A stretch of DNA of 42,517 nt from Bacteroidota bacterium (GTDB taxonomy: Bacteria; Bacteroidota; Bacteroidia; UKL13-3): assembly GCA_947460345.1 (NCBI GenBank), contig CANHGM010000001.1, positions 1-42,517 of the forward strand, written 5' to 3'. Position numbers and translations under genes: made by a program. Positions 2,599 through 24,801 of the stretch are shown piece by piece. Each line of letters begins with the position of its first letter. Within the stretch, counting starts at the first letter, position 1. Under the pieces are notes generated by a model. The model saw only the letters and a program-made list of their open reading frames with translations, searched no databases and was not told where the DNA came from.

Positions 2599-5500
2599 TG
2601 TAACGTTTTTTCCAACCCAGGGCATGATGGAGATACATCTGTAGGATCTCACAAGCTATGGGCTAAAGATGTACATGGTTTTGAGCTTAGCTATTATTTA
2701 GCAGCAGGCAGCAATCCTAATGATTACGTTCCTATTGGTGATAATACAGTAGTGGCAGAACAACCACATATGTCACAATCTTCGAGTATATTAGCAGGTG
2801 CTGCTGAGAATTTATATAATGGAAATATACGCAGTATGGTTACAGCAGTAAATGTTCTGAATAGTGGATCACCATTGGCTTTTGCTTATCAATATGATCA
2901 ATTGAATAGATTGAAAACGGCTACTGCATTTGATAATTACAATGCTACTACCAATGTATGGAATAGCAGTGGCAGTGCCTTATCACAATGGGCAAACAGC
3001 TTTACTTATGATGCCAACGGTAATATACTAACACAAATAAGAAAAGGCAATAGTCCTACAAGTATGGACAATTTGGTCTATCATTATAGTGGCTCAGATA
3101 ACAGACTATTATATGTGGATGATTCTATATCTGCTGGTAACTATGCCGATGATATAGATGACCAAGCCTCAGGAAATTATGCTTATGATGCTATAGGAAA
3201 TTTGATTCATGATACCAAAGAAGAAATAGAAGCTATAGAATGGAGTGTGTATGGCAAAATACTAACTATAGGACGCACTAATGGTAGTACTAAGCCTGAT
3301 TTGGAATTTGAATATGGACCAGATGGTAATAGGGTGTTGAAAATTGTGAAATCTAAAGACTCATTGGTGAACTGGGTTTATACCTACTATGTGAGAGATG
3401 CCCAAGGCAATGTGATGGCTACTTATACCCGAGAGACCAACCGCCGAATTCGCAACACGGCTGTTTCCTTTGGAGATATTAATGATAAAGTAATTGCAGA
3501 TAAGGGCCCAAGTAGCTGGTATACATTTATGAAAACTACCAGTGTAGACACAGGTACTTTTAAAACAGATTTCCTCACAAACATATTTAATAACAGTTTA
3601 GGGGCAAATTTCCTCAAAGAATCAAACTTGGTAATTGATTACTATTCAGGCCCATATGCTGGCAGACTTAATAATACGCTTACTTCTATGGGGTTTGGAA
3701 GTATTATTTCGGCATCCGTTGCAACCTATGGCAAACAAGCAACGGCTAATACTGTCTTTAGCTCTTATAGTTATTATGCCTACTTAATGAACGCTATTGC
3801 TAACAATAAGGCAGATTTTCTGAATGGATTTTATATGACTAACTCAGCCAGTTTCGATTTGATGTATTTTTACGTAACAGGAAATATAAGCCCAGGTTAT
3901 CCTACCTCTTTTACTGACTTGATGCCTGGAGGTAATGAGTCATCTATATTTTCTTGGTTCTCTTCAAACTTGGGCTCAGGTGATTTGGCTCTTATTCTTA
4001 ACCTGTTTCCCGATGCTGATTTTAATTATATACTTCTTTACCCTGGAGATAACATAGCAAATGCTTTTACTGCTGCATATAGTACAGGTACTTTAGTGCC
4101 TATGATGATATCATACAACCATCCAGATTTTTGTGATAAAACTATACTCAGTGCTTTAACGTCGTATAGTTGGGGCACATCAGACTGGGTAAACTGGGCT
4201 ATGACCAATGACTCTGTAACGGCATATGCTACAGCATTAGAGAAGTTTACAATGTATGCAGGTTACACACAAGATGCTAGGCGTTATTATACCAAAGAAG
4301 ATTATTTGAAAAAACTGCGAAACAATTATGATGATGCTTATTACAATGAACTGATGAACTACTTTATGCTGCGGGTAATAAATTATAGTGCAGCAACGTT
4401 TGTTGATATGAATAATGTATTAATAGCCAACAGAGGCTGGACAGATTGGGCTAACTTTATGCAAACTTCAGCAGTATATGGAGGAAGTTATAATCTGCGT
4501 GAGGCATCTATAGAGCATGTATTTGCTAGCGGTAATGGAGGCACATTTATTACCACCACCTGGGGTTCAAACACAGGACTTATAGAAATGTATTATGGAG
4601 CAAATACAAGTAGTTTTAATGGGTATCTGGCTACTATAGGAGCTGACACTGTTGCTGCTTTGTATAGAAACTATTATGGAAAGAGTACATTAGCCACAAA
4701 TCTGGCAGGTACAACTTGCAGTAGTATGATGACCCAAATGTTGCAGACAAGAAAGTACCAGTTTTTATCGCAGTTTTATTCACTTAACAGTGCAAGCTAT
4801 AACACAATGTATACCTCTGTAACAGGGAATGCCCCACCTGCTTTCCCTACGTGCATCACAGACCTATTACCAGGGGGCTATGATGTTCTTATCTCAGCAT
4901 GGTTTATTCCTAATATGGGTTGTAGTAATTTTGCAGGAATATGGGGAGGTTTCAGCGACGGTGATTTTGATGCTGTATTGGCAGGTATGGGTAGCTCTAG
5001 CTTAGGTAGTTTGTTAGAATCTAATTGTTCAATATCTGACCATGTGAGCATATTAAAATCGTTTGAAATGTCCAGGTTGAGTGCGTTTACAGCCACCACT
5101 CAATCGGCCTCTTGGTGGGGCAATTGGTATATTAATACTCAAACAATGTTTGTTGCATATATATATACGCTTAATTACTATACATCTTCGGTGAGCGGAG
5201 CTCAGGAGGGAATAAGCGGATACTTAACCAAAGAGGATTACCTTGGACTGATAAAAGCGTATTTTGGTGTTGGCACATACGATACCTTGCAGGACAACAT
5301 GCCACAGGGCAAATATTTTATAGAGAGTTTTAAATTGGATGAATTATATTTGTATGGCAGTTCAAGACTAGGGAACCTAGAAGCAAACCTTATGTTAAAA
5401 TACCAGCATTTTAATGCTACCTATAATGGCCTCACAGGCACATATACTCACAAACAACAAGTAAAAGACTCGGTGTTATATAATAACCAATTACATTACA

Positions 5501-6579
5501 AGTTAATGACTAGAGGCAAGAAAAGGTATGAGCTATCTAACCATCTAGGTAACGTGCTAGCAGTGGTCTCTGATCAATGGGAAGCCACCTGCAGCAGCAG
5601 TGTGATCACACATTATAATGCTGTGGTGATTCAAGCAACTGACTACTCAGCCTTTGGTGCTCCGCTACCAGGAAGAACATATAGTTTGAGTGTAGATAAA
5701 TATAGATATGCCTTTAATGGCCAAGAGAAGGATAATGAGGTGGCGGGTGAAGGGAATATAAATACTGCATTATTTTGGGAATATGATACAAGGTTGGGTA
5801 GAAGGTGGAATTTGGACCCAAAACCAGAAACATCCATTAGTGACTATGCATGCTTAGAAAATAATCCGATTTGGCATTTAGATCCATTGGGAGATAAAAT
5901 TATTGATGATAATGGAAATGAAGCTGAAGTTTCACAGCGAAAAAATGGGAAATATAAAATTTCTGGTAGCTTTGGTATTTTTAGACGAATAATTATTAAT
6001 GTTATGTTGAGATCTCCAAAAGGGGTGGAAGTATTGAAACAGGCAGAAGCGTCTCCAACTCGTATAACGATAAGGCTGTATTTGCATACAAAACAATTAC
6101 CTAAAACAGCTGGTCGTGCACATGCAATTACATTTCCTGGAGGCGAAACTGATGACGGTAATAACTACAAAACTGCAGAAATAAATTTAGCATTATTTGG
6201 GCATGGTCTTAGACGTGAAAGCAATAGATTCCATAAAGGAGGTTTTTGGAATGTGATGGCAGCGATTCTTGGACATGAATTCGTCCACGCTTCAAATAAG
6301 GAGCAACATAATAAAGAAAAAGATGCCAATAGTAATGGGACGTTTGGAACGGAGTTGTTACCATTTATTGCTGAAAAAGAAATACTAGAAGAATTAAATC
6401 CTAAAAGAGCAAATACTATAAACAGAATTTACAAGGTTATAACTGAAGCTGCAGAAACGCATAAAGATATGAAAACAGGAAGCCATGAAGGGAAAACTAT
6501 TACTGGTGCAATAAGTGCTATTGTAAGAGAACTTAATAAAGATGCTGCTGCAACAAAGAAAGAACAAGACAAAAAGTAA
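2551..6579 (+). CDS. 5'-disrupted RHS/YD-repeat protein with HExxH C-terminal domain (cassette A)
   Basis: The RHS-like sequence begins only after the IS21 end (about 2604, NVFSNPGHDG). The first residues come from IS repeats, so the true N-terminal part lies to the left of the IS, outside the window. Order in the product: a KLWAKDVHG segment, YD-type repeats (YQYDQLNRL, TYDANGNIL, YAYDAIGNL, YGPDGNRV), YYVRDAQGNVMATY, a ~620-residue insert made of two related halves, LYGSSRLG, ELSNHLGNVLAVVSD, and the core YRYAFNGQEKD...DTRLGRRWNLDP. After the core comes a unique ~230-residue C-terminal domain with HEFVH (from about residue 1242), a zinc metallopeptidase signature. It is followed 15 bp later by a lipoprotein gene. 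I infer a polymorphic toxin whose only full-length carrier in view is broken by the IS. Confidence 0.85.
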   Translation: MLRREGVNLLRRKGVNCNVFSNPGHDGDTSVGSHKLWAKDVHGFELSYYLAAGSNPNDYVPIGDNTVVAEQPHMSQSSSILAGAAENLYNGNIRSMVTAVNVLNSGSPLAFAYQYDQLNRLKTATAFDNYNATTNVWNSSGSALSQWANSFTYDANGNILTQIRKGNSPTSMDNLVYHYSGSDNRLLYVDDSISAGNYADDIDDQASGNYAYDAIGNLIHDTKEEIEAIEWSVYGKILTIGRTNGSTKPDLEFEYGPDGNRVLKIVKSKDSLVNWVYTYYVRDAQGNVMATYTRETNRRIRNTAVSFGDINDKVIADKGPSSWYTFMKTTSVDTGTFKTDFLTNIFNNSLGANFLKESNLVIDYYSGPYAGRLNNTLTSMGFGSIISASVATYGKQATANTVFSSYSYYAYLMNAIANNKADFLNGFYMTNSASFDLMYFYVTGNISPGYPTSFTDLMPGGNESSIFSWFSSNLGSGDLALILNLFPDADFNYILLYPGDNIANAFTAAYSTGTLVPMMISYNHPDFCDKTILSALTSYSWGTSDWVNWAMTNDSVTAYATALEKFTMYAGYTQDARRYYTKEDYLKKLRNNYDDAYYNELMNYFMLRVINYSAATFVDMNNVLIANRGWTDWANFMQTSAVYGGSYNLREASIEHVFASGNGGTFITTTWGSNTGLIEMYYGANTSSFNGYLATIGADTVAALYRNYYGKSTLATNLAGTTCSSMMTQMLQTRKYQFLSQFYSLNSASYNTMYTSVTGNAPPAFPTCITDLLPGGYDVLISAWFIPNMGCSNFAGIWGGFSDGDFDAVLAGMGSSSLGSLLESNCSISDHVSILKSFEMSRLSAFTATTQSASWWGNWYINTQTMFVAYIYTLNYYTSSVSGAQEGISGYLTKEDYLGLIKAYFGVGTYDTLQDNMPQGKYFIESFKLDELYLYGSSRLGNLEANLMLKYQHFNATYNGLTGTYTHKQQVKDSVLYNNQLHYKLMTRGKKRYELSNHLGNVLAVVSDQWEATCSSSVITHYNAVVIQATDYSAFGAPLPGRTYSLSVDKYRYAFNGQEKDNEVAGEGNINTALFWEYDTRLGRRWNLDPKPETSISDYACLENNPIWHLDPLGDKIIDDNGNEAEVSQRKNGKYKISGSFGIFRRIIINVMLRSPKGVEVLKQAEASPTRITIRLYLHTKQLPKTAGRAHAITFPGGETDDGNNYKTAEINLALFGHGLRRESNRFHKGGFWNVMAAILGHEFVHASNKEQHNKEKDANSNGTFGTELLPFIAEKEILEELNPKRANTINRIYKVITEAAETHKDMKTGSHEGKTITGAISAIVRELNKDAAATKKEQDKK
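3466..5310 (+). repeat. Tandem ~310-residue duplication inside the RHS barrel gene
   Basis: Two consecutive units, about 3466-4395 and 4396-5310, are offset by 930 nt. Matching landmarks: GDINDKVIADKG against VDMNNVLIANRG; WYTFMKTTSV against WANFMQTSAV; MYFYVTGNISPGYPT against MYTSVTGNAPPAFPT; TDLMPGG against TDLLPGG; YTKEDYL against YLTKEDYL. The units are well diverged, so the duplication is old. The pair separates YVRDAQGNVMATY from LYGSSRLG, two motifs that normally lie close together in RHS proteins of this phylum. Confidence 0.8.
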
Positions 6580-6594: not shown

Positions 6595-7032
6595 ATGAAA
6601 ATTTTGTTAATCATCACATTGCTTGTTTTTGTGTCATGTCAATCTTATCAAGAGATAAGTAAAGAAAAGTTCACACTTGAACGAAAAATTAATTATTATA
6701 AAAAAGCAACTAATATAAGAAGTAGTATGAACATTCCCAATCTTCATGATTCTCTTTTGATAAAATGTGATAGTTTATGTGTACATTTAATAAAATATGA
6801 AGGTCATTGGTCACATGGGACACCTATTTTTATTTATTTTGCAGATTTTAATTCAGTTTATCTTTTTAAGTATAAGTTCATTACAGATAGTTCTTATAGC
6901 AAAAAAACAATTAAGCAATTAATCTTTAATAAAAGAACTTCGCTTAAGTTATCAAACAGTCAAGTTGATTCTATTGTAAATGCGGTTTATAAGTTAAACA
7001 CATTATTTGATCATTCAGATTTTTGGTTTTAG
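6595..7032 (+). CDS. Putative immunity lipoprotein of cassette A
   Basis: A 145-residue protein with a short lipoprotein signal (MKILLIITLLVFVSC, lipobox FVSC, Cys15). The mature part is hydrophilic, with no family I recognise. It starts 15 bp after the HEFVH toxin-like gene on the same strand. Position, size and export signal fit a dedicated immunity protein anchored in the inner or outer membrane facing the periplasm. The role is inferred from context only. Confidence 0.65.
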   Translation: MKILLIITLLVFVSCQSYQEISKEKFTLERKINYYKKATNIRSSMNIPNLHDSLLIKCDSLCVHLIKYEGHWSHGTPIFIYFADFNSVYLFKYKFITDSSYSKKTIKQLIFNKRTSLKLSNSQVDSIVNAVYKLNTLFDHSDFWF

Positions 7033-7093: not shown

Positions 7094-7215
7094 GTAGGTA
7101 TGTGCCAAATATCACTTTTGCAGAGACAAAAATTTGTAGTACTTAAATATCAGTAGAATATCTTTATAAAAAAAAATAAATGAGAGGCAATAACCTCTCA
7201 TTTTGTTATTGGCAT
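7094..7215 (+). repeat. Cassette-end repeat with terminator, copy 1
   Basis: About 120 bp that recurs at 18606-18730. Shared blocks are CCAAATNTCACTTTTGCAGAGA, TTAAATATCAGTAGAATA and a terminal hairpin, AATGAGAGG...CCTCTCATT. The hairpin (7178-7205) followed by T-rich sequence looks like a rho-independent terminator for the RHS/immunity operon. Confidence 0.75.
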
Positions 7216-7355
7216 TTAATAGTGGGCGTATATAATGGTTTGTATTAATCTATGAGCAACTTACTGAAAAGAAGATTTAGAAAAGAGTGATGTTCCTTTT
7301 TTCTCATTAACAAATTATTTGAAAAGAATCCAAAGAAATTTTTAATCAAAATTTG

Positions 7356-8051: not shown

Positions 8052-9077
8052 AGAATCAAAACGAAATTATATATATCCACAGACAATTACACCGCCACCA
8101 ATGAGTGGGTATATAGATATGCCTTTAATGGCAAAGAAAACACCGAGATAGCCAACGATGGTTACTACATGGACTTTGGGGCTAGGATATATGATAGTAG
8201 GTTGGGTAGGTGGATGAGTACGGATCCGCTGCAAATGAAATATTCTAGCTATTCGCCATATAATTATTGTTATAATAACCCACTTGTTTTTAGTGATCCA
8301 GATGGAAAAAGTGCAACTTTATCTATTTCACCTGAAGGAGTTGTAACTATAAATATAAAAGTTACTTTTTATGGAAAAAATGCAAATACAGTATTGTCTA
8401 AAACTGATGCTGACATAGTAGCCACTAATGCCAACAAATTGATGGATGAAGCTTTTCAAGCATATTTAGCGGATCCTAATACTACTCCATTAGTAATTGA
8501 CGGTATAACTGTTACTAAAGTTCAGTTTAATATTACTGCAGATGTCAATGAGAAACTTACAGATGAAGATATTAAAAAGAATACTGATAATGCTCAAAAC
8601 TATTACTTAATTGGCGATAAAAATGTTACTACAGTTAAGAATGATGAAGAAGGAGAAACGCAAGGTGGCAATACAGGTGTCATACGACGAAGTAGTTTGA
8701 ATGATCAAGATGGTGGGATTAAACCCTTATTAACTAAATCCATGGAAGAAAGCATGGGTGTAAATGCTGAAGGTGTAAAAAAGATGTCAAGTTCCTGGCT
8801 CACAACCGGAAAGAGTTTCTTACATGAACTGATTCATGGACTTGGATTGACCAAAAAAAGTGAAGGCGGAGATGATCAAGGCCATCCTGAAGATAAAACA
8901 CCACAAAGTGGTCCGTATGGTAAACAATATGATATCACAACTGGAAATCATAGCGATATTAATTTTAAACGTGCTCCATCCAAAAGGACTTGTAGTCAAT
9001 TATTTAAAGCTATAAAAAAACAAGCTGATGGAACATATATTATAGGAAGTAAAACTAATGAACCTCCCAAACCATGA
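8052..9077 (+). CDS. Orphan RHS C-terminal cassette B, HELIH metallopeptidase-like, no proper start
   Basis: The RHS frame is open from a stop at 8049 and reads WVYRYAFNGKENTEIANDGYY before the first Met at 8169 (302 residues from there). The core motif (DFGARIYDSRLGRWMSTDPLQ...YNYCYNNPLVFSDPDG) is followed by a ~250-residue domain with HELIHGLGL (residues 219-227 counted from 8169) and a later His in DDQGH, which suggests a metzincin-like zinc peptidase. It lacks the MGCQK leader and its repeat, and no ATG, GTG or TTG lies between 8052 and 8169 in frame. It is therefore either translated from 8169 without part of the core or a silent donor cassette. Its stop overlaps the next start (ATGA). 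Confidence 0.75.
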   Translation, partial: RIKTKLYISTDNYTATNEWVYRYAFNGKENTEIANDGYYMDFGARIYDSRLGRWMSTDPLQMKYSSYSPYNYCYNNPLVFSDPDGKSATLSISPEGVVTINIKVTFYGKNANTVLSKTDADIVATNANKLMDEAFQAYLADPNTTPLVIDGITVTKVQFNITADVNEKLTDEDIKKNTDNAQNYYLIGDKNVTTVKNDEEGETQGGNTGVIRRSSLNDQDGGIKPLLTKSMEESMGVNAEGVKKMSSSWLTTGKSFLHELIHGLGLTKKSEGGDDQGHPEDKTPQSGPYGKQYDITTGNHSDINFKRAPSKRTCSQLFKAIKKQADGTYIIGSKTNEPPKP

Positions 9078-9487
9078 GAAAAATTCTTATCATTATTACA
9101 ACTATCTCTGCTTTAATTTATTCATGTGTTGATCATAAAATTGATAAAGTAGTACCTGTTAAGAGAAAAGTTAAGGCTGAGATTGATCTTGCAACAGCAT
9201 ACTATCTTTTTCGTCATGATAAAGGAGGATGCCTAGGACTTCGGAGTTCGATCAATTTGGAAAAATTTCTTTTGGGTTTATACCGAGACAGCGTAATGAC
9301 CGCTTTGGGCAAGCCAGATATTATAAGTATAGATAAGAGCCAATATACTTATTATACAAATGGTGAATATTGCAATGCTGGTTATGGTCGACCCCGAAAG
9401 AAGTATAATGAATTACCTTACGCTACCCTAATATTAATTTTTGATTCAAATAGAGTATCAAATGTCTTACATGGATATGGTAATTAA
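9074..9487 (+). CDS. Putative immunity lipoprotein of cassette B
   Basis: A 137-residue lipoprotein (MRKILIIITTISALIYSC, lipobox IYSC). It starts inside the ATGA overlap with the HELIH cassette, so translation is probably coupled. The mature region contains a segment (LYRDSVMTALGKPDIISIDKSQYTYYT) resembling the short SmpA/BamE-like fold often written as 'LG.PD....Y.Y', but this is a weak resemblance. The immunity role is inferred from position. Confidence 0.6.
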   Translation: MRKILIIITTISALIYSCVDHKIDKVVPVKRKVKAEIDLATAYYLFRHDKGGCLGLRSSINLEKFLLGLYRDSVMTALGKPDIISIDKSQYTYYTNGEYCNAGYGRPRKKYNELPYATLILIFDSNRVSNVLHGYGN

Positions 9488-9498
9488 CTAGCATTCCC

Positions 9499-9603
9499 CA
9501 ACCAACGCCGAAATGTTTTCGGCGGGTTAATGGTTTTGTGATTTGTAATCACTATTCACATGTAAATTAATTAAATCTAATTATATATCTTGCACTTATA
9601 AAA
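9499..9603 (+). repeat. Cassette leader repeat, copy C
   Basis: A non-coding block nearly identical to those before cassettes E, F and I. It contains hairpin 1 at 9506-9524 (8-bp arms CGCCGAAA/TTTCGGCG, loop TGT) with an outer AACC/GGTT pair, hairpin 2 at 9538-9552 (GTGATT/AATCAC, loop TGT), and a conserved TATATCTTGCA about 10 bp before the ATG that loosely resembles the Bacteroidota -7 box. Identity continues for about 110 bp into the coding region. Confidence 0.8.
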
Positions 9604-10548
9604 ATGGGTTGCCAAAAATTTATATATAAACCAGAGCTGCATATATATTCTTCTAAAAAAATGAAGAGGAGAAATGGGATGTATATATATAATTATAGAT
9701 ATGGTTTCAATGGGAAAGAGAAAATGGATGAAATTTCAGGGGATGGTAATAGTGTTGATTTTGGGGCAAGAATATTAGATACAAGATTAGGTAGGTGGAT
9801 GAGTTTAGATCCTTTACAAGATAAATACCCAGCTCTAAGTGCATATAATTATGTAGCTAATAATCCAATAAAATTTATTGATCCTGATGGAAAGGAAATT
9901 CGAATTGCCGGGTCTAAAGAATATCAAGCAAAAGCTTTAAAAGCTATGCAAGAATTAACAAATGATAAATTAGTGCTTAAGAATGGCGTGGTTTATATTT
10001 CAAAATTAAATTCAGAGAATAAAGACAAGAAACTATCAAAAGGTTCTGACTTGATTAGAGAGTTAAATAATAAAGATCAAGATGCTAAAGTAGTTACAAT
10101 TTATAGTCCAGAAGCATGGAAAGAAGCTGGGTTGCCGATTTACAATAACAAATTAACATCAGCAACTCAAAGTTGTGGTATGTCGGAACCTGGTGTTGAC
10201 CCTAATGCTGAAAAGTATAAATCCAATATTAGTTCAGACGGAACCCCAGGGAAAAAGGACGACGTAAACATTAGGTTAAACTTAGATGATATTACAACGA
10301 CAACTTTGGAAGATGGTAAAACAAAAGAAATAACAGAAAATAAAATTGAATTAGCTCATGAACTAATTCATGCTAAGGATTTTGTTCAAGGAACAAGACC
10401 AGCTACAGAATTGGATAAAAATGGTGTTGAAAAAAACACTAAAAACAAAGCTGGGGAAAAGGTAAATAACGCAGAAATTAAAACAAGAAATGGAGAAAAT
10501 GAAATTAGACAAGAACAAGGTATTGAGAAAAGATATAATGGCAAATAA
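9604..10548 (+). CDS. Orphan RHS C-terminal cassette C, M91/NleD-like metallopeptidase
   Basis: A 314-residue protein. Residues 1-30 are the conserved MGCQK leader, about 31-98 the RHS core (YRYGFNGKEKMDEISGDGN...LGRWMSLDPLQ...NNPIKFIDPDGKE), and the rest a toxin-like domain. AHELIHAKD gives HExxH at 252-256, and the C-terminus has ENEIRQEQG. This pairing of AHELIHA with a later EN.IR.E.G matches the M91 (NleD-type) zinc peptidases found in type III effectors and RHS tips. There is no signal peptide. The next gene starts inside its 3' end. The leader could be a real N-terminus or a recombination handle. Confidence 0.8.
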   Translation: MGCQKFIYKPELHIYSSKKMKRRNGMYIYNYRYGFNGKEKMDEISGDGNSVDFGARILDTRLGRWMSLDPLQDKYPALSAYNYVANNPIKFIDPDGKEIRIAGSKEYQAKALKAMQELTNDKLVLKNGVVYISKLNSENKDKKLSKGSDLIRELNNKDQDAKVVTIYSPEAWKEAGLPIYNNKLTSATQSCGMSEPGVDPNAEKYKSNISSDGTPGKKDDVNIRLNLDDITTTTLEDGKTKEITENKIELAHELIHAKDFVQGTRPATELDKNGVEKNTKNKAGEKVNNAEIKTRNGENEIRQEQGIEKRYNGK

Positions 10549-11134: not shown

Positions 11135-11194
11135 AAACTTATTTATAAACCTGAACTGGGTGTATATTTTTCGAAATCTGATGAAGACATATAA
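11135..11194 (+). pseudogene. Remnant of an RHS cassette leader
   Basis: Directly after the stop of the previous gene the sequence reads KLIYKPELGVYFSKSDEDI then stop. This corresponds to residues 5 onward of the MGCQKFIYKPELHIYSSKK leader, most like the cassette H version (KLIYKPELGLYSS). The repeat, the start codon and the whole toxin are gone. It marks a deleted cassette whose immunity-like gene survives at 11236. Confidence 0.7.
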
Positions 11195-14831: not shown

Positions 14832-14832
14832 A

Positions 14833-17301: not shown

Positions 17302-18201
17302 ATGGGTTGCCAAAAACTTATATATAAACCAGAGTTGGGGTTATATTCTTCTGAAAACATTAAGGGGAGAAATGGGATTTATATATATAAATATAGATTC
17401 ACCTTTAATGGGAAGGAACATGATGATGAAGTTAGTGGGGAGGGGAATGATTATGATTTTGGAGCAAGGATATATGATGGTAGGTTGGGGAGGTTTTTAA
17501 GTGTTGATCCATTGACAAATAATTACTCAGAATTATCACCTTACTGTTTTGCTGCAAATAATGCAATTAGACTCATTGATATTAATGGAGAAGCTCCAGG
17601 TGATCCCTTTGCTAGTGCAAGAGATGCTGCGATTGATTTTGCCAAGACTTATAATGACAATTCTATTTTTGCAAATAAAGAATACTCTTCAGTAATTTAT
17701 TCATATAAGAATGATAAGGGAGATGTTTTTTATTCATATACTGTTCCAGAAGTTGGAGGTTCTTTTGGGTTAGAGCTTACAATTAAAATTCCAAGCGATG
17801 TATATCTTAAAAATAATGGAGATGTATATTTGGAGGCAACAATACATACACATTCCGCATATGATCCGTTATTAGATGAAAAAAACGATGAGATTTCAAC
17901 GACCGATTTAGATTCATACAAAGGAGGCAACGGTTCTCCGAAATCAGATGGCTATGTGGTGACACCTAGTGGAAAGTTATTCAAATATGACCTTGAGTAC
18001 GATGATATTTATGAAATAAAGGATGATTATGAATCAAATCCACTTCATTTGCCAGCTGACAAAAACGACCCAGATGCTAAAGACTCACAAGGATTGGCTA
18101 ACACATTTATTTTTCGAAAAGACGAACCGATAATTATTAAGAATAATTCTCAAAAAAAAGAAAATAAATCTGACTCTAATGTCGATGAAAATAAAAAATA
18201 A
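17302..18201 (+). CDS. Orphan RHS C-terminal cassette H, DUF4329 (JAB-like) domain
   Basis: A 299-residue protein. The leader (MGCQKLIYKPELGLYSS) and RHS core (YRFTFNGKEHDDEVSGEGN...DGRLGRFLSVDPL...LIDINGEA) are followed by a domain that fits DUF4329: ARDAAIDFAKTYNDNSI near its start, EYSSVIYSY, YSYTVPEVGG, then IHTHSAY (HTH at 182-184), ISTTDLDSYKGG and YVVTPSGKLFKYD. HTH plus a downstream Asp recalls the JAB/MPN metal-binding site. The C-terminus is a charged tail. An NTF2-fold immunity gene follows after 13 bp, strengthening the toxin reading. Confidence 0.8.
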   Translation: MGCQKLIYKPELGLYSSENIKGRNGIYIYKYRFTFNGKEHDDEVSGEGNDYDFGARIYDGRLGRFLSVDPLTNNYSELSPYCFAANNAIRLIDINGEAPGDPFASARDAAIDFAKTYNDNSIFANKEYSSVIYSYKNDKGDVFYSYTVPEVGGSFGLELTIKIPSDVYLKNNGDVYLEATIHTHSAYDPLLDEKNDEISTTDLDSYKGGNGSPKSDGYVVTPSGKLFKYDLEYDDIYEIKDDYESNPLHLPADKNDPDAKDSQGLANTFIFRKDEPIIIKNNSQKKENKSDSNVDENKK

Positions 18202-18214: not shown

Positions 18215-18559
18215 ATGAAAACACCCTCTCGCATATTTATTTGGGTTCTTTGTTTAAGTATAGTAATGTCTTTTCAATATGAAAGAAACATAAATTATAA
18301 TTATATACCTGAAAAGGGATTTGTTCCGAATGATTCTGTTGCTGTTGCTATTACCGAGGCAATTTTAAGCCCTATTTATGGTGATGTTATTTATGAATTT
18401 CGTCCATTTAAAGCTGTTCTTTCTGCGGATAAAAAAGTTTGGATCGTTAATGGAACTAAAAAAAAATCTGGACATGGAATAATACAACTAGGTGGAGTCC
18501 CTCATGCAGAAATTCAAAAAATGGACTGTAAAATTATCAGGGCATATTGCACCAAGTAG
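18215..18559 (+). CDS. NTF2-fold immunity protein of cassette H
   Basis: A 114-residue protein with an N-terminal hydrophobic signal (FIWVLCLSIVMSF). The mature part follows the pattern of the NTF2-fold immunity family: VPNDSVAVAITEAILSPIYGDVI, then RPFKAVLSADKKVWIVNGT and a GG-containing strand (IQLGGVPHAEI). This family is known from polymorphic toxin loci. It lies 13 bp after the DUF4329 cassette on the same strand and is the best-supported immunity gene in the array. Confidence 0.8.
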   Translation: MKTPSRIFIWVLCLSIVMSFQYERNINYNYIPEKGFVPNDSVAVAITEAILSPIYGDVIYEFRPFKAVLSADKKVWIVNGTKKKSGHGIIQLGGVPHAEIQKMDCKIIRAYCTK

Positions 18560-18605: not shown

Positions 18606-18730
18606 TGTGTCCCAAATGTCACTTTTGCAGAGAGACGAATTTCAAGTAATTAAATATCAGTAGAATACTGATGTAAGAAATCAAGAAAATGAGAGGCAAT
18701 TGCCTCTCATTTTTATTATGGACATTTGCG
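18606..18730 (+). repeat. Cassette-end repeat with terminator, copy 2
   Basis: Matches 7094-7215. It ends in a perfect 28-nt palindrome at 18686-18713 (14-bp arms AAAATGAGAGGCAA/TTGCCTCTCATTTT), a strong terminator. A shorter extra copy of its start (TGTGTTCCAAATGTCAC) lies just upstream near 18565. The remaining sequence to 18905 is AT-rich with no gene. Confidence 0.75.
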
Positions 18731-18905
18731 AGAAAGCTTAAAAATAAAGGTTTGTATTTACCTTGCAAACTACTTTACTCAAAATATCTACTATATACTC
18801 CTTATATATTGAGGAGTTTATAATAAACATTAATTAAAACAAAGTTATATATATATAATATATATACTTCTAAACATTTTAAAGAAAACCACAATTGCCC
18901 CTCAA

Positions 18906-19844
18906 TCAAAAACAAACCAACTGTCCATGGTTTTTAACTGCACCAAACGGATGAAATAAATTGATAAGTTCTTGTTGCTTTTCATAGGGTACCACCCTGT
19001 ATTTATCAGTCGACGAAATCCATTTATGGCCCGCTAACAATTGCACATCCTCTAATGGGATTTTCTTTTCGTTGAGCCAATTGGCAATAACACTTTGTCT
19101 AATGGTTTGAGCATTTAGATTTCTATCAGGATATATAGGCTTGTATGTTTCTATGATATAATTTAATCCATCTACTGAAATTGGATTACCCAACTTAGAA
19201 TATATAAACTGATTTTTAATATTATTCTTCACATTTATTTTTGTTCTACAATTATTCAAGTACTTTTCTATAATAGTAAATTGTTGTGGATGTATTTTTA
19301 AATGTCTGGTTTTAAGTTTCGCACTTCCTCTTATATATATTGTACCTTGTTCAAGATCGATATGAGAGGTCATCAGATTGCAAATTTCATGTGGCGTTAG
19401 TGCTTGATATATCAATAGCGATAATACCAATTGGTTGCGATATTTGAGTATGTTAAATCTTTCTTTTCTTTTTAACAACTTCTCAAGTTCAGCACTCGTA
19501 AATATATCAAACAATACAACCTTGTTGTTTTGTACCTGACTTTTTATAAAAAACCTCCGACAAGGATGGTCATCTCTTGCATGGTTGTGAAATAAAAAAT
19601 CATAGTACTTTTTTATCGCAGCTAAAATGGTATTGCGATACCCCAAACTCCTACTTTTAATAATTGAGGTATCAAAATATTTAACAATATCATGATATTT
19701 ATATTCTGTAGCATTGGGGTTTCTTTTAAGAAATACATCAACTAAAAACTGATAAGTTTTAATTGATTGCAAGGAATGTCCTTTTTGTACCAAGTAAATA
19801 GCAAAATCTGTTTCAGGTTTCTTTTGATTGATATGTATATTCAT
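18906..19844 (-). CDS. Tyrosine recombinase with degenerate active site
   Basis: A 312-residue phage-integrase-family protein with an N-terminal SAM-like DNA-binding region and a C-terminal catalytic fold. The first catalytic Arg position reads ALTPHE (Thr150, where GLRxxE is expected), and the HxLR box reads QTIRQS (Gln246 for His; Arg249 kept). AGHKWISST...KY keeps His273 and the nucleophile Tyr282. It overlaps the upstream recombinase by 4 bp (ATGA), so the two are co-translated. It may work as a non-catalytic or half-active partner in a heteromeric recombinase. XerC/D-like naming would be misleading. Confidence 0.85.
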   Translation of the reverse strand: MNIHINQKKPETDFAIYLVQKGHSLQSIKTYQFLVDVFLKRNPNATEYKYHDIVKYFDTSIIKSRSLGYRNTILAAIKKYYDFLFHNHARDDHPCRRFFIKSQVQNNKVVLFDIFTSAELEKLLKRKERFNILKYRNQLVLSLLIYQALTPHEICNLMTSHIDLEQGTIYIRGSAKLKTRHLKIHPQQFTIIEKYLNNCRTKINVKNNIKNQFIYSKLGNPISVDGLNYIIETYKPIYPDRNLNAQTIRQSVIANWLNEKKIPLEDVQLLAGHKWISSTDKYRVVPYEKQQELINLFHPFGAVKNHGQLVCF

Positions 19845-20776
19845 AGAAGTTGTTTTTGTAAAGCTGTTCTTTGTTTTCGTTTAATAACATATATATTGGT
19901 TGTATCAATACCAGCATGACCTAAAAAGTCTCTGACAAATTCAATACCTGCTCCATTTTCTATCATATGAGTAGCTATACTGTGTCGCAAACGATGAAGC
20001 GTTATGTGTCTAGAGTTAATATATCTACTTTTGCATCGAGCTACTATTGCCTTTACTCTGCTATTTATTTCATCGCCTGATAAACGTTGGCCTTGTTTGC
20101 TAATGAGTAATGCCGGATTGTTATATTGAGTTATGGCTTCTACCCATATTTGCCTTTCATGATGTATATAGTTTTTTAAATCATTTTTACCACTTTCAGT
20201 CAGAGGTATAGAGCGTGTTTTACCACGTTTCCCATTTCTCACTACCACCATACTTTGCCGTATGTATATATCATTTAAGTTGAGAGAATATATCTCGTTT
20301 CTTCGCAATCCACATCCATAAGCCAAAGTTAAAACTGCTTTATCTATTAGGCTATTACATGCACCATACAATTCAAGAACCTCATCCATGCTTAACACTT
20401 CTCTAGGCTGATGCGGGGCATGAACAAACTTTGGGAATACAAAAGGTAACTCTTGTATGGCTTCAATATTAAGCAAAAAATCAAAATACAAACCTAAGGC
20501 ATACATGTGTTGTTGAATGGTTTTATCAGACAAAGGATTTCCTGTATATTTATTGGGGCGTTGGTGAATGTATATATGGTATTGTTGTATTTCTCTGGAA
20601 GTGATATGTGCTAAAACCTCAACTCCTTTTTTCTCTACAAAGACTAAAAACTCTTTTACATATTCAGGAAAGTATACCTCTTTTTTGGTGGTTCTATAAC
20701 CAAGCACACCTATATACTTTTTAAAATTGAAGAACGACTCTCGGAATACAAGATTCTTGATAGGATTTTTTTTCAT
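19841..20776 (-). CDS. Tyrosine recombinase, complete catalytic set
   Basis: A 311-residue XerC/D-like recombinase. The core-binding domain covers about 1-115, then the catalytic domain has R158 (GLRRNE), K186 (GKRGKTR), H261 and R264 (HRLRH), H287 (LGHAG) and Y296 (NIYVI), all present. It is the first gene of a two-gene operon with the degenerate recombinase. It sits between cassettes in opposite orientation, so site-specific shuffling, inversion or past integration of the array is plausible. The substrate site is unknown. Confidence 0.9.
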   Translation of the reverse strand: MKKNPIKNLVFRESFFNFKKYIGVLGYRTTKKEVYFPEYVKEFLVFVEKKGVEVLAHITSREIQQYHIYIHQRPNKYTGNPLSDKTIQQHMYALGLYFDFLLNIEAIQELPFVFPKFVHAPHQPREVLSMDEVLELYGACNSLIDKAVLTLAYGCGLRRNEIYSLNLNDIYIRQSMVVVRNGKRGKTRSIPLTESGKNDLKNYIHHERQIWVEAITQYNNPALLISKQGQRLSGDEINSRVKAIVARCKSRYINSRHITLHRLRHSIATHMIENGAGIEFVRDFLGHAGIDTTNIYVIKRKQRTALQKQLL

Positions 20777-20954: not shown

Positions 20955-21153
20955 TTAAAACTTAATAATGTGTGTATTAAGGTCAAAAAAGAATTCACAA
21001 AACAGACTTCTGTTTATCTCTTCGCCATTAAAGGGTGGTCTATACTTATATGTATAACTATTTCTTTTATAAGAAGTTTTAGCCAAAGGCCGATACTCTC
21101 GAAAGCCTATATCTGACGCGAACTTGATTCGGGAACTAGTTGTATGCCATTGG
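20955..21153 (-). pseudogene. RHS core remnant with second-type leader
   Basis: The - strand reads DIGFREYRPLAKTSYKRNSYTYKYRPPFNGEEINRS and then loses similarity, ending at a stop at 20955. YKYRPPFNGEE is a clear relic of YRYAFNGKE. The upstream part (21048-21153) is the repeat that also occurs at 15389-15492 on the other strand. No toxin domain remains. Confidence 0.65.
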
Positions 21154-21186
21154 TGAATATCAAACAAGAAAATGATTAGTATAAAA

Positions 21187-21260
21187 GATAAAAAGCCTCC
21201 TGAAAGCAAGCTTTTTATCTCGATTATATTTGTTCCTCCCGATATGTATCGGGAGGAACA
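21187..21260. terminator. Two hairpins between cassette I and the core remnant
   Basis: Hairpin 1 is at 21187-21219 (9-bp arms GATAAAAAG/CTTTTTATC). Hairpin 2 is at 21231-21260 (perfect 13-bp arms TGTTCCTCCCGAT/ATCGGGAGGAACA, loop ATGT). They could terminate transcription of the cassette I operon, but distance and symmetry also allow a DNA structure. Confidence 0.55.
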
Positions 21261-21431
21261 TTGTAGTTTAGAAATGACATAGAGAATGCAGAGCATTATA
21301 TTATTGAAAGAAGTTATAGATTACAAAGACCTCCTCTTTGTATATACTTTCAACTTGGCTGATTCATTCACCTCCACCTCACTGTATTCTTATTTAAAAC
21401 TACTTTTAGTTCTGAGAAGTATTATCCAAAT

Positions 21432-22019
21432 TTAATTAACAATTATTGGCAAAAATATTTTTTCTTCTTTTTCATTTGGATTTAATTGCAAATACATATT
21501 GTCTATTAATTCTAATTTATATGACCCTATAATAGATGGTTTGGCATTTATTATTATATAATCAATAGCTAATTCTAATATTTTTATTTGAGTTGTAATG
21601 AACACACCAGAATTATTTTCCTCTCTTTTAGAAATAGTTCTTTTCCCATATAATCTTTTTATCAAGTTAGAAAGGTTTGTATTTGGTTTGTATTTGGTTA
21701 GTTTTTTGTCATTTAAAAAGTTCGTCATAGACAAGAAATCAAAATACACTTTTGGTGATTTTGAAAGAAAATTATAAAATTCAGGCACATTGAATAAAAA
21801 GTAATAAGTTATAGAATCAATGATTTTCTTAGAATTCATAGAATCAATAAAGATTAATAAACTATCTTGATCAAAATTATCAGGAGAATACTGTTTATGG
21901 ATGTTTATTAATACAAAAGTTCCTTTAAGTTTTCCTTCCATTGATTGAGCATTTACAGCCATAAAGAAGAAAAAGCACAGCCCAAAAGTTATCTTTTTTT
22001 TATTATTTAGTATCTTCAT
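21432..22019 (-). CDS. Putative exported immunity protein of cassette I
   Basis: A 195-residue protein with a signal peptide (KKKITFGLCFFFFMAVNAQ). The mature part has no recognised family. Its start lies inside the 3' end of the HEIGH cassette (17-bp overlap), which implies coupled translation and an immunity role by position. Confidence 0.6.
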   Translation of the reverse strand: MKILNNKKKITFGLCFFFFMAVNAQSMEGKLKGTFVLINIHKQYSPDNFDQDSLLIFIDSMNSKKIIDSITYYFLFNVPEFYNFLSKSPKVYFDFLSMTNFLNDKKLTKYKPNTNLSNLIKRLYGKRTISKREENNSGVFITTQIKILELAIDYIIINAKPSIIGSYKLELIDNMYLQLNPNEKEEKIFLPIIVN

Positions 22020-23007
22020 CTTTTATATATTTTTCACCAGGTTGAATTATCTTTTTATTTTGGGGATCAGAAATAGTCTCCATTTCCTCTTTAGTTGGCG
22101 TATGATCGCCTGTATTTGACATTAAACCCTTTTTGGGGTATGATGCAGCATCGGTAGTCCCAGGGTGGTCTAAACCAAGGTCATGTCCAATCTCATGAGC
22201 AATTGCACCATTTGCTGTTTCGCCTGAAGAAGTATTAAATCCAGTATACCCACTATAGCTCTTATCATAGAAAACAGGATTGAGAACAATACTATTACCT
22301 ATATGATATGCAGCAGCTATACTACCCGTAGGTTTACCTTCCTTATCCTTTAAAATAAATGCGTCGTCATTTACAGCACCCATTTTTATTGTACCACCTA
22401 GTGATTTACCATTTGCTGTCCATATTCTTGATTTGTTTCCATTGGGTTTTACATCTGATGGCAATTCTGGAACTACAACAATATCAAAAGATATTTTGGC
22501 AGGAATAATTTGTGCTTTATCTTGACTCATTGAGACTGGATCTAATCCATCATCTTCAAAACTAAACTGATCATTCAAAGTTGGATTCGAATTATAAGTT
22601 TGGTTTAGATATGTCTCTAATTCTGCTAAATTTACATTAGCAACTACTTGTTCTGTAGCAACATAAACGGCTTTAATTGTAAAACAATTGTCCCCTGTAG
22701 CAACTTTTTCTTCTAGTCCATCTAAATCGATAGATAATATAGGCTTATTACCTGCAAACTGATAAGGAGTGTACCAAGGATACGAAGTAAATAAAGGGTC
22801 TAATGATAAAAATCTAGCTAAGTTGGGGTTATATATCCTAAAACCATAATCATAAGTAGAGCCACCACCACCCATTCCTTCTGTATCTATCTCCTTCCCA
22901 TTAAAGGCATATCTATATTTATATATATACATCCCATTTCTCCTCTTCATTTTTTTAGAAGAATATATATGCAGCTCTGGTTTATATATAAATTTTTGGC
23001 AACCCAT
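22003..23007 (-). CDS. Orphan RHS C-terminal cassette I, metzincin-type metallopeptidase
   Basis: A 334-residue protein. The MGCQK leader and RHS core (YRYAFNGKEIDTEGMGGGG...NPNLARFLSLDPLF...DLDG) are followed by a peptidase domain with the complete metzincin zinc site HEIGHDLGLDH (His271, His275, His281; catalytic Glu272) and a downstream Met-turn-like GLMSNTGD. This is the clearest active peptidase of the array. It lies on the - strand with its own leader repeat and exported partner. Confidence 0.85.
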   Translation of the reverse strand: MGCQKFIYKPELHIYSSKKMKRRNGMYIYKYRYAFNGKEIDTEGMGGGGSTYDYGFRIYNPNLARFLSLDPLFTSYPWYTPYQFAGNKPILSIDLDGLEEKVATGDNCFTIKAVYVATEQVVANVNLAELETYLNQTYNSNPTLNDQFSFEDDGLDPVSMSQDKAQIIPAKISFDIVVVPELPSDVKPNGNKSRIWTANGKSLGGTIKMGAVNDDAFILKDKEGKPTGSIAAAYHIGNSIVLNPVFYDKSYSGYTGFNTSSGETANGAIAHEIGHDLGLDHPGTTDAASYPKKGLMSNTGDHTPTKEEMETISDPQNKKIIQPGEKYIKDEDTK

Positions 23008-23115
23008 TTTTATAAGTGCAAGATAAATAGTTTGATTTAATTAATTTACATGTGAATAGTGATTACAAATCACAAAACAATTAACCCGCCGAAAACATTT
23101 CGGCGTAGGTTGGGG
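23008..23115 (-). repeat. Cassette leader repeat, copy I (inverted)
   Basis: The reverse complement is nearly identical to copies C and F, with both hairpins perfect. Small changes lie near the start site (CAAACTATTTATCTTGCA in place of TAATTATATATCTTGCA). It is the only repeat copy on the - strand, on the far side of the recombinase genes. Confidence 0.8.
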
Positions 23116-23151
23116 AGTTTTTTTTCGTTTTAAATGTTCTAATTTTGGAAC

Positions 23152-23206: not shown

Positions 23207-23893
23207 TTATTTATTCTTACTAAGAATAAAGTCAATTACCCCAGATAAATAAGGATATTTCTCAAATGCATTCTGAGATATTATGTCTTTCTTTTTGCTC
23301 AAATTTGATATATCAACATTGGGAACCAAATTGTCATTAACAAACTCAATAAAATTATTTTTTTTAACACCACTAAGGATATATACTTTTTTCTTTCTTT
23401 CATCAATGGCAAAATAGAAATTATGCATCCAAGCGTAACCAATAGTAATAAACTCCTTCTTGTTAAATAGACCAAATAAACAAGCCGTATCGTGACAATC
23501 AAATTTGTCAAAAAGGTAATTTAATTCTCTTTTATAAAACGCAACTTGTTGACTATCGTCAAATACATCCATAGAATCATATAGTATTCTGTCCTTGGGG
23601 GTAAACTTAAGATATAAAGCACTTAATATTCCACCAAATGTTACTTGTGTAATATTAAGAAATGTTATTTTACTTAAAGAATCAAAATGATAATCTGTTA
23701 CATAAAAATCATTTAACAAACTATCCAATGAATTTTTATTTTCAATAGAAAATAAAGAATTGCTATTTACTAATGCAATTGTTTTTGCCATAAATATATT
23801 ATCCCTTTCCTTATTAGCTGATATATCTTGGCAAAATGCTTTTTGAATTGTTAGTATTATGACCAGTATACTAAGAATATTCTTTACGGACAT
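23207..23893 (-). CDS. Putative exported immunity protein of cassette J
   Basis: A 228-residue protein with a signal peptide (MSVKNILSILVIILTIQKAFCQ). The rest is a mixed alpha/beta sequence with no recognised family. It overlaps the cassette J gene by 10 bp. The immunity role is inferred from this arrangement. Confidence 0.6.
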   Translation of the reverse strand: MSVKNILSILVIILTIQKAFCQDISANKERDNIFMAKTIALVNSNSLFSIENKNSLDSLLNDFYVTDYHFDSLSKITFLNITQVTFGGILSALYLKFTPKDRILYDSMDVFDDSQQVAFYKRELNYLFDKFDCHDTACLFGLFNKKEFITIGYAWMHNFYFAIDERKKKVYILSGVKKNNFIEFVNDNLVPNVDISNLSKKKDIISQNAFEKYPYLSGVIDFILSKNK

Positions 23894-24801
23894 TGATAAA
23901 CTCCTCCTTTCATAAAAATTTCTTCATACTTGTTTGCATCTGGTTCTTCCTGCTCATTTGTCAGATTTTCATTGGGTTTACAATAATATCTGAATTGAAC
24001 ATGTCCAAGTGCATGAGCAATATCATTTGACTTCTTATTACCTTTATTTATTTCATCGTCATGATATATTTTGATGGTTATTCTTGCGTTTTTACCTTGG
24101 AATTCACCTAAGCCTGTTTCAATAGATTCTGTTGTTGAACTTGATTTTGAAGGATCGCCATCACTACTCTCCATTTTTATATCAGAATATGTACCTATGA
24201 TTTCAATGTCATATTTTTTTGAATCCCACTTGGCATACTCTTTTTGATTGATGTTCTTAAGCTCCTTTAACTTATTCTCAACAGCAAGCCATTTGTCATA
24301 TATGTTATTATATGCTTTATCCGCAGCATCTTTTTCTGTAGTAGCTTTGTCAAAAGCATCTGTAGCGGTTTTAAGTCTGTTTTCATGACCTTCTGATTTC
24401 GGATCCTCAGATTTGATTATATTAAGGTTATCTTTAGAAGTATTTAGAGCCTCTGTTTTTTGGGTTCTATTACTTTCTGCCTCTGATTTTTCTTTTTCAT
24501 GCCCATTGATGTACTTATCGCCAAGTAAATCTGTTCTCCATATTGGGTTATCTCCAAATGCTGCATATGAACTTTCCCAAGGATTCAGCTTCGGATCAAT
24601 ATTCCACCTTCTACCCAACCTCGTATAATACTCCCAAAACAATGCAGTATTAGTATTCCCATCCCCAGCAACATCATCGTCCCTCTCTTGCCCATTAAAG
24701 GCATATCTATACTTCTTCTCCGTTAATTGAATAATTTCTCCAAAATTTCTCAAAATTGGTGAATAGAAATGTGTTGGATTATTAATTCTGAAGCATCCCA
24801 T
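23884..24801 (-). CDS. Orphan RHS C-terminal cassette J, coiled coil plus altered metallopeptidase
   Basis: A 305-residue protein with a different leader (MGCFRINNPTHFYSPIL) joined to the RHS core (YRYAFNGQERDDDVAGDGN...YTRLGRRWNIDPK...DNPIWRTDLLGDK), then a long charged coiled coil (about 100-190). The C-terminal domain has IAHALGHVQF: His263 and His267 are in place, but the catalytic Glu of HExxH is Ala264 (GCA where GAA is expected), followed by EEPDANKYEE. The design parallels cassette E. It may be a mutated, inactive toxin or a fold that does not use this Glu. No leader repeat lies upstream. Confidence 0.75.
   Translation of the reverse strand: MGCFRINNPTHFYSPILRNFGEIIQLTEKKYRYAFNGQERDDDVAGDGNTNTALFWEYYTRLGRRWNIDPKLNPWESSYAAFGDNPIWRTDLLGDKYINGHEKEKSEAESNRTQKTEALNTSKDNLNIIKSEDPKSEGHENRLKTATDAFDKATTEKDAADKAYNNIYDKWLAVENKLKELKNINQKEYAKWDSKKYDIEIIGTYSDIKMESSDGDPSKSSSTTESIETGLGEFQGKNARITIKIYHDDEINKGNKKSNDIAHALGHVQFRYYCKPNENLTNEQEEPDANKYEEIFMKGGVYQCP

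What the first reader, a model, noticed from the sequence alone, without database searches (positions are those of the whole stretch)
2599..24801. Array of nine RHS C-terminal toxin-like cassettes beside one RHS carrier gene
After the IS-disrupted RHS gene come six + strand and two - strand modules, each with RHS core motif, a different C-terminal domain and a small downstream gene. Together with the carrier's own tip, nine different tips occur in about 22 kb. Orphan rhs/CDI tips are known as donor stores for tip exchange, but an array this dense, with shared leaders and its own recombinases, looks like an organised cassette system.
Basis: partly seen in the sequence, partly recalled or inferred. 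Interest (0 to 1): 0.88.

Follow-up and report, generated by a model that had tools for sequence, protein, structure and literature searches.

The report
Toxin-tip cassettes with own recombinase pair
This bacterial genome carries a row of nine different predicted toxin tips, each with a small partner gene, beside a pair of recombinase genes whose relatives sit in similar rows in other bacteria; the row was probably built by a mobile element that would insert into the toxin gene and swap its tip.

Summary
Confirmed: nine RHS core + variable tip modules (carrier, six + strand, two - strand), each followed by a small gene; six share an upstream-plus-leader repeat. A second array of six lies on contig C24. 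Seven of 12 leader cassettes carry a border hairpin otherwise almost absent from the genome. Tips are mostly predicted hydrolases (8 of 15 have HExxH). Partner genes usually begin with an export-signal-like segment (91 of 102 across arrays, 20 of 53 controls).

The recombinase pair is the key. recB keeps the catalytic positions in 15 of 15 copies; its partner recA lacks the first His in 14 of 14. Ten of 11 recA matches in 58 genomes lie in or beside RHS arrays. The order tip-immunity-(regulator, primase/ATPase)-recB-recA recurs in eight loci. In Aureibacter plasmid pAT2 this unit is an exact 8,169-bp tandem repeat; all three junctions share the same 8 bp inside conserved core codons. Window cassettes lose identity at the same codons.

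Best explanation (inferred, about 0.7): an integrative element inserts at the RHS core, gives the carrier a new tip plus immunity, and leaves the old tip behind its right-end leader; the window is a stack of reduced units. Excision and toxicity are untested. My paper searches listed no such element.

The parts
1..2614 (-). IS21-family insertion sequence (istB 115-849, istA 890-2446) at the contig start
   Evidence: Pfam IstB_IS21 E 7e-67, rve and Mu-transpos_C_2; inverted repeat 1-51 / 2564-2614
2551..6579 (+). 3' part of the RHS carrier gene: RHS core from about 5698, tip with LGHEFVH (zincin-like motif)
   Evidence: TIGR03696 E 5.8e-6, below cut-off; sequence
5696..5720 (+). candidate recombination site in the carrier: 25 nt in codons K-Y-R-Y-A-F-N-G, identical in two window cassettes and two C24 cassettes
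6595..7032 (+). partner (predicted immunity) gene of the carrier tip, lipoprotein-like
   Evidence: N-terminal hydrophobic segment plus lipobox
7101..7246 (+). direct repeat copy 1, 77% over 151 columns; two copies in the genome
7356..7667 (-). M78 (IrrE-like) ORF after the carrier's partner gene, where complete elements carry an HTH regulator
   Evidence: PF06114 E 4.6e-8; open frame extends upstream to about 7940
8169..9077 (+). orphan tip 1, HELIH motif; no shared leader
   Evidence: TIGR03696 E 1.9e-11
9074..9487 (+). partner gene 1, export-signal-like N-terminus
9495..9603 (+). border hairpin plus promoter-like region of cassette 2
9604..10548 (+). orphan tip 2: leader MGCQKF..., RHS core, peptidase M91 (HopH/XopG-like)
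   Evidence: PF14891 E 3e-8, 34.6 bits against cut-off 25
10490..11973 (+). two partner ORFs (10490-11134, 11236-11973), both with a hydrophobic N-terminal stretch
   Evidence: by eye; one search scored the first, 1.9
12225..13270 (+). border repeat and orphan tip 3, HELKH motif
13227..13631 (+). partner gene 3, lipoprotein-like (start probably internal)
13697..14831 (+). border repeat and orphan tip 4 (no family found; KHEIL motif)
14722..15231 (+). partner gene 4 (signal-like segment from an internal start)
15521..16563 (+). leader with in-frame TAG, then orphan tip 5 (ORF from GTG 15586; weak DUF4347 similarity)
   Evidence: 1 TAG; E 0.009, below cut-off
16563..17135 (+). partner gene 5, export-signal-like N-terminus
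17168..18201 (+). border repeat and orphan tip 6: DUF4329 with JAMM-type residues (E, H, H, S in 9 of 9 aligned sequences, D in 8 of 9)
   Evidence: PF14220 E 1.1e-15; alignment; Foldseek best hits Rpn11/AMSH, E 0.006 and more
18215..18559 (+). partner gene 6: NTF2-fold immunity family Imm-NTF2-2 with signal-like N-terminus
   Evidence: PF15631 E 1.7e-13
18608..18757 (+). direct repeat copy 2, next to the recombinases
18906..19844 (-). recA: accessory tyrosine recombinase lacking Arg I and the first His
   Evidence: PF00589 E 2e-16; alignment of 14
19841..20776 (-). recB: tyrosine recombinase with the catalytic positions kept
   Evidence: PF00589 E 1e-33; alignment of 15
20955..21296 (-). degenerate cassette remnant (YKYRPPFNGEE)
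21432..22019 (-). partner gene 7, export-signal-like; the next intact gene before recB on its strand
22003..23116 (-). orphan tip 7 with leader and border hairpin; metzincin-like HEIGHDLGLDH
   Evidence: Reprolysin_4 E 3.5e-4, M66 E 3.1e-4, just below cut-offs
22898..22922 (-). candidate site, the same 25 nt as in the carrier
23207..23893 (-). partner gene 8, export-signal-like N-terminus
23884..24801 (-). orphan tip 8 (HALGH); core 84% identical in DNA to the carrier core over 125 nt

Best explanation
The array is probably a stack of reduced copies of an integrative element whose recombinase pair would insert it into the conserved core of an RHS gene, giving that gene a new predicted toxin tip and immunity gene while the old tip would be left behind the element's own right-end leader. 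Shown: the modules, the repeats, the recurring tip-immunity-recB-recA order, and in plasmid pAT2 an exact 8,169-bp tandem unit whose three junctions share 8 bp in the core codons. Inferred: that recB cuts and joins there with recA as helper; that the window's cassettes arose this way and lost the regulator and primase genes; that the promoter-like leader keeps displaced immunity genes expressed, so that a cell stays protected against kin still using the old tip; that tips are toxic hydrolases acting outside the cytoplasm, since their partners carry export-signal-like starts.
For: Association: recA matches over 58 relatives, 11 at E <= 1e-12, 10 of them in or within about 6 kb of RHS cores (three of the ten are fragments); the eleventh is a single Xer-like gene hit by both queries. 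Both recombinases in 8 of 24 MGCLKLTY loci (7 contigs; 8 of the 20 that are named Bacteroidota or carry an RHS core, 0 of the other 4) and in 0 of 14 control stretches of 20 kb (Fisher 0.011 with all 8 counted). Order tip-immunity-(regulator, primase/ATPase)-recB-recA: window, L052, L063, L056, L154, L177, L178 and pAT2 (twice there); L181 has the same layout with the two recombinases in reverse order. pAT2: 8,177-nt run of identity at offset 8,169; junctions at 8605, 16774 and 24943 of L196 all read TATGGATT in the codons Y-G-F of YGF(N/Q)G; left arms of junctions 2 and 3 are the same, right arms of 1 and 2 are the same, the outer two differ. This genome: identity among 11 of the 12 leader cassettes 0.77-0.93 over the 100 nt before the F codon, 0.36 at 50 nt after it; a like step in genus g6, 22 cassettes. 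Carrier and four cassettes share exactly 25 nt there. recB catalytic positions in 15 of 15; recA first His missing in 14 of 14, Arg I in 13 of 14 (by eye).
Against: No excision, circle or strain with an empty site was seen; only one locus (pAT2) shows junctions directly, and a tandem duplication through 8-bp microhomology, or an assembly error, cannot be excluded for its second copy. 27 other array loci have neither recombinase, and the C24 array shows none in its 14 kb. In the window, L052 and L063 the recombinases face opposite-strand cassettes, an arrangement the simple model does not predict. In pAT2 the first displaced frame has no ATG/GTG/TTG start, so the right end need not give expression. 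Leader pN/pS is only 0.59-0.65 against 0.72-0.77 in shifted frames, weak evidence for translation. The border hairpin is nearly array-specific in this genome but not in genus g6. One recA homologue (L150) keeps an Arg at position I.
Confidence: 0.7

Rival explanations
1. Ordinary displaced RHS tips: cassettes arise by homologous recombination and duplication through the shared core and leader repeats, and the recombinases are unrelated neighbours.
For: Standalone toxin-immunity cassettes beside carriers are long known (PMC3482391, passages and sections 41 and 46). Leader and core repeats of 100-300 nt are long enough for homologous recombination. 27 other array loci lack the pair.
Against: 10 of 11 recA matches in 58 genomes are at RHS arrays; like gene order in eight loci; the 8 bp shared at the pAT2 junctions is short for homologous recombination.
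Confidence: 0.2
2. The recombinase pair belongs to a selfish element that uses RHS cores only as a landing site; tip exchange is a by-product and cassettes without recombinases are not moved by it.
For: Fuller copies carry regulator, primase/ATPase and other cargo-like ORFs typical of mobile elements. Many cassettes carry no recombinase.
Against: In pAT2 the unit itself includes a tip and immunity gene at its left end and a leader at its right end, so its insertion exchanges a tip.
Confidence: 0.25
3. An integron-like system: recB is an integrase acting on the folded border hairpins as attC-like sites.
For: A hairpin stands at 7 of 12 leader cassette borders in this genome; recB gives a minor integron-integrase match.
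Against: recB scores 94 bits against the integron cut-off of 265 and 142 for XerC; the hairpin of genus g6 also occurs on contigs where searches listed no array, and it looks like a terminator; the identity step lies at the core codons, not at the hairpin.
Confidence: 0.07
4. Silent archive: orphan tips are not expressed and serve only as a store.
For: A Salmonella orphan rhs gene lacks the delivery part (start of the abstract of PMC7043789); one leader here has a TAG; the leader has no signal peptide by eye; the first displaced frame of pAT2 has no usual start codon.
Against: Promoter-like sequence just before the start codon, alike within this genome and within genus g6 and in several MGCLKLTY loci (by eye); a shared MGC-K-L-Y leader start in many Bacteroidota; 15 uninterrupted tip frames in this genome.
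Confidence: 0.2

Closest known systems
Polymorphic toxin systems with standalone toxin-immunity cassettes (Zhang et al. 2012, PMC3482391; passages and two sections read)
   Same: RHS core, variable C-terminal toxin domain, downstream immunity gene, cassettes beside a carrier; Tox-HopH1, Tox-MPTase and JAB-type toxins listed there; one lipobox immunity family (Imm65) for a JAB toxin in Bacteroidetes
   Different: Here many cassettes have promoter-like starts and a shared leader, a recombinase pair recurs beside them, and metallopeptidase tips have export-signal-bearing partners; that paper's table lists no immunity protein for HopH1 and MPTase1-5
Orphan CdiA-CT/Rhs-CT modules of enterobacteria (PMC3150448, PMC3967940: listing and abstract starts only)
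   Same: C-terminal toxin plus immunity next to a full-length gene
   Different: No recombinase pair is mentioned in the text I saw; H-repeat insertion sequences there are recalled, not checked
Integrons
   Same: Tyrosine recombinase next to an array of unrelated gene cassettes with repeated borders
   Different: recB is not an integron integrase by score; the proposed boundary lies inside a coding sequence; no attC shown
Prophages and islands that integrate in a gene and replace its 3' end (for example e14 in icd; recalled)
   Same: Insertion inside a coding sequence with the element supplying a new 3' end
   Different: Here the supplied 3' end is a different toxin-like domain with its immunity gene, not a copy of the original
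TANFOR polymorphic toxins of Bacteroidetes (PMC7073777, passages)
   Same: Bacteroidetes carriers with Sec signal, downstream immunity genes, suggested T9SS link
   Different: Different N-terminal domain; no recombinase arrays in the passages seen

Membership tests
RHS polymorphic toxin cassettes | RHS-associated core before a variable C-terminal domain | tested here: met
   TIGR03696 in 9 of 9 modules at E <= 1, 6 of 9 above cut-off
RHS polymorphic toxin cassettes | Adjacent downstream immunity gene | tested here: inconclusive
   Downstream gene in every window module; of 10 such ORFs scanned one belongs to a named immunity family (PF15631); function untested
RHS polymorphic toxin cassettes | Tip related to known toxin domains | tested here: met
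   M91 and DUF4329 above cut-off; metzincin-like just below; the others unassigned
RHS polymorphic toxin cassettes | Toxic activity neutralised by the partner | not testable with these tools
   needs expression tests
Tyrosine-recombinase integrative element | Recombinase with intact catalytic residues | tested here: met
   recB 15 of 15 by eye; recA not (first His missing in 14 of 14)
Tyrosine-recombinase integrative element | Short identical sequence at both element ends and at the target | tested here: met
   TATGGATT at three junctions in pAT2; not directly seen in the window
Tyrosine-recombinase integrative element | Excised circle or empty site | not tested
   no reads and no sister strain of the window at hand; writing out an empty site was left out
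Integron | IntI-type integrase | tested here: not met
   94 bits against cut-off 265
Integron | attC sites | tested here: inconclusive
   border hairpins exist but no attC model was run
T6SS effectors | T6SS sheath gene in the genome | tested here: inconclusive
   PF05943 in 0 of 58 genomes, E. coli control rings; that model may miss the Bacteroidota type (recalled)
T9SS substrates | C-terminal sorting domain on the protein (T9SS itself present: SprA_N in 58 of 58 genomes) | tested here: not met
   no Por_Secre_tail in any of the nine modules at E <= 1

The most novel reading that the evidence does not exclude
A phylum-wide class of tip-swapping integrative elements: a heteromeric tyrosine recombinase pair (one canonical, one degenerate) inserts at a fixed site inside the conserved RHS core codons, rearms the toxin gene with a new tip and immunity in one step, and turns the old tip-immunity pair into a stand-alone gene by giving it the element's promoter and leader. 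Reduced units without recombinases behave as cassettes moved in trans, building arrays like this one.
Probability: 0.6. Interest if true: 0.9.

Novelty: new variant of a known kind. Interest (0 to 1): 0.82.

Why it matters
How polymorphic toxins change their tips has been put down to recombination with standalone cassettes; I know of no named machinery for it. A site-specific recombinase pair acting at the RHS core would make that process directly testable, would explain why displaced tips keep open frames and starts, and would offer a way for a cell to switch weapons while keeping immunity to its own past weapons. It also gives a simple marker (the recA signature beside RHS genes) for finding further toxin-immunity pairs.

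Tried and rejected
RHS_repeat (PF05593) on the own genome: no match. Rfam: nothing above gathering score in 1-26000; no tRNA. Border hairpin as universal recombination site: rejected, in genus g6 the matching hairpin also lies on contigs where searches listed no array. M91 tip of the window in 395 class genomes: only its own copy at E <= 1e-6, so that test said nothing on tip exchange. recA in viral contigs: 35 stretches matched a pattern, none confirmed. recA in phages: 5 records, about 25% identity; in plasmids one good hit, Aureibacter (39.5%), the rest 24-26%; the pAT2 recA finds only itself and matches of 22-27% among the 25 rows shown of 36 records. Leader-only protein search reached 12 candidates, 8 hits. 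Leader selection test weak. JAMM fold search: best hits are JAMM enzymes but none at E <= 0.001, and leader and core of the model have pLDDT under 50. MGC as an acylation signal: considered, no evidence. Protease-rich tips as a general rule: not general, HExxH in 7 of 39 rows in genus g6. The chance of 10 of 11 was not computed; by eye I put 1-2% of those genomes within 6 kb of an RHS core.
Full report
What is there. The window (contig C1, 1-42517, of a 3.0 Mb genome in 76 contigs) begins inside an IS21 element. Behind it runs the 3' part of an RHS carrier gene, then six + strand and two - strand modules, each a short RHS core with a different C-terminus and a small gene after it. A search of the own genome with one leader-core stretch gave 16 matches: the nine modules, six more on C24 and a leader fragment on C74. 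The C24 array was read to its contig end: six leader cassettes, each with a partner gene.

Cassette anatomy. Twelve leaders (six in the window, six on C24) were aligned; most run from a hairpin (CGCCGAAA-TG-TTTTCGGCG) through a promoter-like stretch to the start MGCQK or MGCPK, one MVCQK. The hairpin pattern has 8 matches in the genome with up to 3 mismatches, 7 at cassette borders. In genus g6 six species share a different leader; in the eight cassettes aligned (seven of G005, one of G034) it stands behind a terminator-like hairpin and, in most, a TATATTTG-like sequence just before the start; that hairpin also occurs elsewhere in those genomes. Several other genomes have shared leaders of their own, and in others the cassettes share a longer piece of carrier instead. 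A pattern for MGCxKLxY matched 12 of 395 class genomes (10 matches in the own genome, 13 in 11 others; 2 seen for the reversed control); of the 13, at least 4 run into a clear RHS core and 2 more into the stretch usually before it, by eye. A stricter MGCLKLTY pattern over the GTDB r220 genomes gave 24 stretches, 19 in records named as Bacteroidota; an RHS core was found in 13 of the 15 of these loci that I scanned with a profile. Seven metagenome proteins share a leader of 82-93% identity to the query leader (an eighth 60%), and by eye carry different C-termini. Upstream of 23 such starts the palindrome TTCAANTGAA occurs exactly in 10, against 0.1 expected in resampled sequence. The -33/-7 reading of these promoters is recalled, not tested.

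Tips and partners. Of 15 tips in the genome, 8 carry HExxH by eye. M91 and DUF4329 pass their Pfam cut-offs; the metzincin-like tip falls just short; the DUF4347-like tip and the rest are unassigned (window modules only). The DUF4329 tip keeps E, H, H and S of the JAMM motif in 9 of 9 aligned sequences and D in 8 of 9; its homologues stand behind at least four kinds of N-terminus, so the same kind of tip is found on different backbones. Partner genes: of 106 tip frames in 35 loci (L048 and L177 overlap, so one module is counted twice), 102 have a downstream ORF, 91 of these with an N-terminal hydrophobic segment, against 20 of 53 second genes in control stretches (Fisher 4e-11). The measure is crude and counts membrane proteins too. 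Zhang et al. list one lipobox immunity family for a JAB toxin in Bacteroidetes and none for HopH1 and MPTase1-5 (PMC3482391, passages).

The recombinases. The two tyrosine recombinases at 18906-20776 have homologous tandem pairs in other leader arrays. Over 58 relatives recA gave 11 matches at E <= 1e-12; 10 lie in or beside RHS arrays listed (three of the ten are fragments), and the last is a lone Xer-like gene. Among the 24 MGCLKLTY loci 8 hold both genes, on 7 contigs; two more hold recA at a locus edge. Of 14 control stretches of 20 kb none holds both, two hold a recB-like gene alone. Against this, 27 other array loci hold neither. By eye, recB keeps the catalytic R, HxxR, H and Y positions in 15 of 15 sequences; recA lacks the first His in 14 of 14 and the first Arg in 13 of 14, L150 being the exception. 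A conserved helper role is likely.

The element. In several loci the pair follows an HTH gene on the other strand and a P-loop or CHC2/Toprim primase-like gene, which follow an RHS tip and its partner gene; a leader with another RHS core follows on the other side. Both sides are present in L056, L181 (recombinases in reverse order), pAT2, and L154 (right side cut by the contig end). In L177 and L178 only the left side was found. In Aureibacter tunicatorum plasmid pAT2 (NZ_AP025307.1, locus L196) a full-length RHS gene with a signal-like N-terminus is followed by partner gene, HTH, CHC2 protein, a small ORF and the recombinase pair, then an RHS orphan, then the same six genes again with identical protein accessions, then another orphan. 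The repeat is exact over 8,177 nt at offset 8,169. Its three junctions share TATGGATT in the core codons Y-G-F, in the same codon phase; the sequence before it is the carrier at junction 1 and the element's right end at 2 and 3, and after it the element's left end at 1 and 2 and a different tip at 3. That is what site-specific insertion into the core would leave.

Back to the window. Eleven of the 12 leader cassettes of this genome (C24 14212 left out) agree at 0.77-0.93 over the 100 nt before the core F codon and fall to 0.36 at 50 nt after it; 22 cassettes of genus g6 behave alike. Part of the slow decline is the conserved core itself. The carrier and four cassettes (two here, two on C24) share exactly 25 nt at these codons, the other ten less, from 2 to 22 nt. 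On the - strand the order tip, partner, recB, recA matches the fuller elements, as in L052 and L063. The M78 gene after the carrier's partner gene stands where fuller elements keep their regulator. The two 150-nt direct repeats that flank the + strand block and the opposite orientation of that block remain unexplained.

Function. Delivery is open: no T6SS sheath match by PF05943 (0 of 58, not conclusive), T9SS present (58 of 58), no sorting domain on the modules. The idea that displaced tips stay transcribed so that their immunity genes protect against kin is inference; the missing start codon at the first displaced frame of pAT2 speaks against it for that copy.

Novelty. Searches of the open-access library for polymorphic toxins or Rhs with orphans, tyrosine recombinases, cassettes, integrases or CHC2 genes listed no paper whose title or abstract start describes such an element; I read passages and two sections of PMC3482391 and passages of PMC7073777, otherwise only listings. 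Subscription papers and preprint servers are largely outside that library. The parts are of known kinds; their combination, and the core codons as the insertion site, appear new.

Noticed in passing
L196 8605-24950 (NZ_AP025307.1, about 163825-180170): Exact 8,169-bp tandem unit with recombinase pair between RHS cores; main support for the mechanism.
   Followed up: yes
window 7101-7246 and 18608-18757: The only two copies in the genome of a 150-nt direct repeat, flanking the + strand cassette block; each holds a hairpin.
   Followed up: partly
upstream of MGCLKLTY-type starts in L140, L145, L146, L154, L156, L157, L158, L160, L110, and in L196: Palindrome TTCAANTGAA, in nine of ten 33-66 nt before the start codon, 10 of 23 loci against 0.1 expected; promoter part or binding site.
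   Followed up: partly
L149, L152, L155, L158, L159, L177, L178, after recA: RelE/ParE-like, DUF1016-like and KilA-N-like ORFs as possible cargo (named by eye).
   Followed up: no
window 25275-25382: Long palindrome (20-bp stem, GGGCAATAGGGCAATAC) just outside the array.
   Followed up: no
window 28476-28583 and 29887-29994: 108-nt direct repeat, 74% identical, outside the array.
   Followed up: no
L056 7202-7339 and 15471-15641; L180 8491-8769; L065 about 4409-4540: recA fragments left inside other arrays, as expected for decayed elements.
   Followed up: partly
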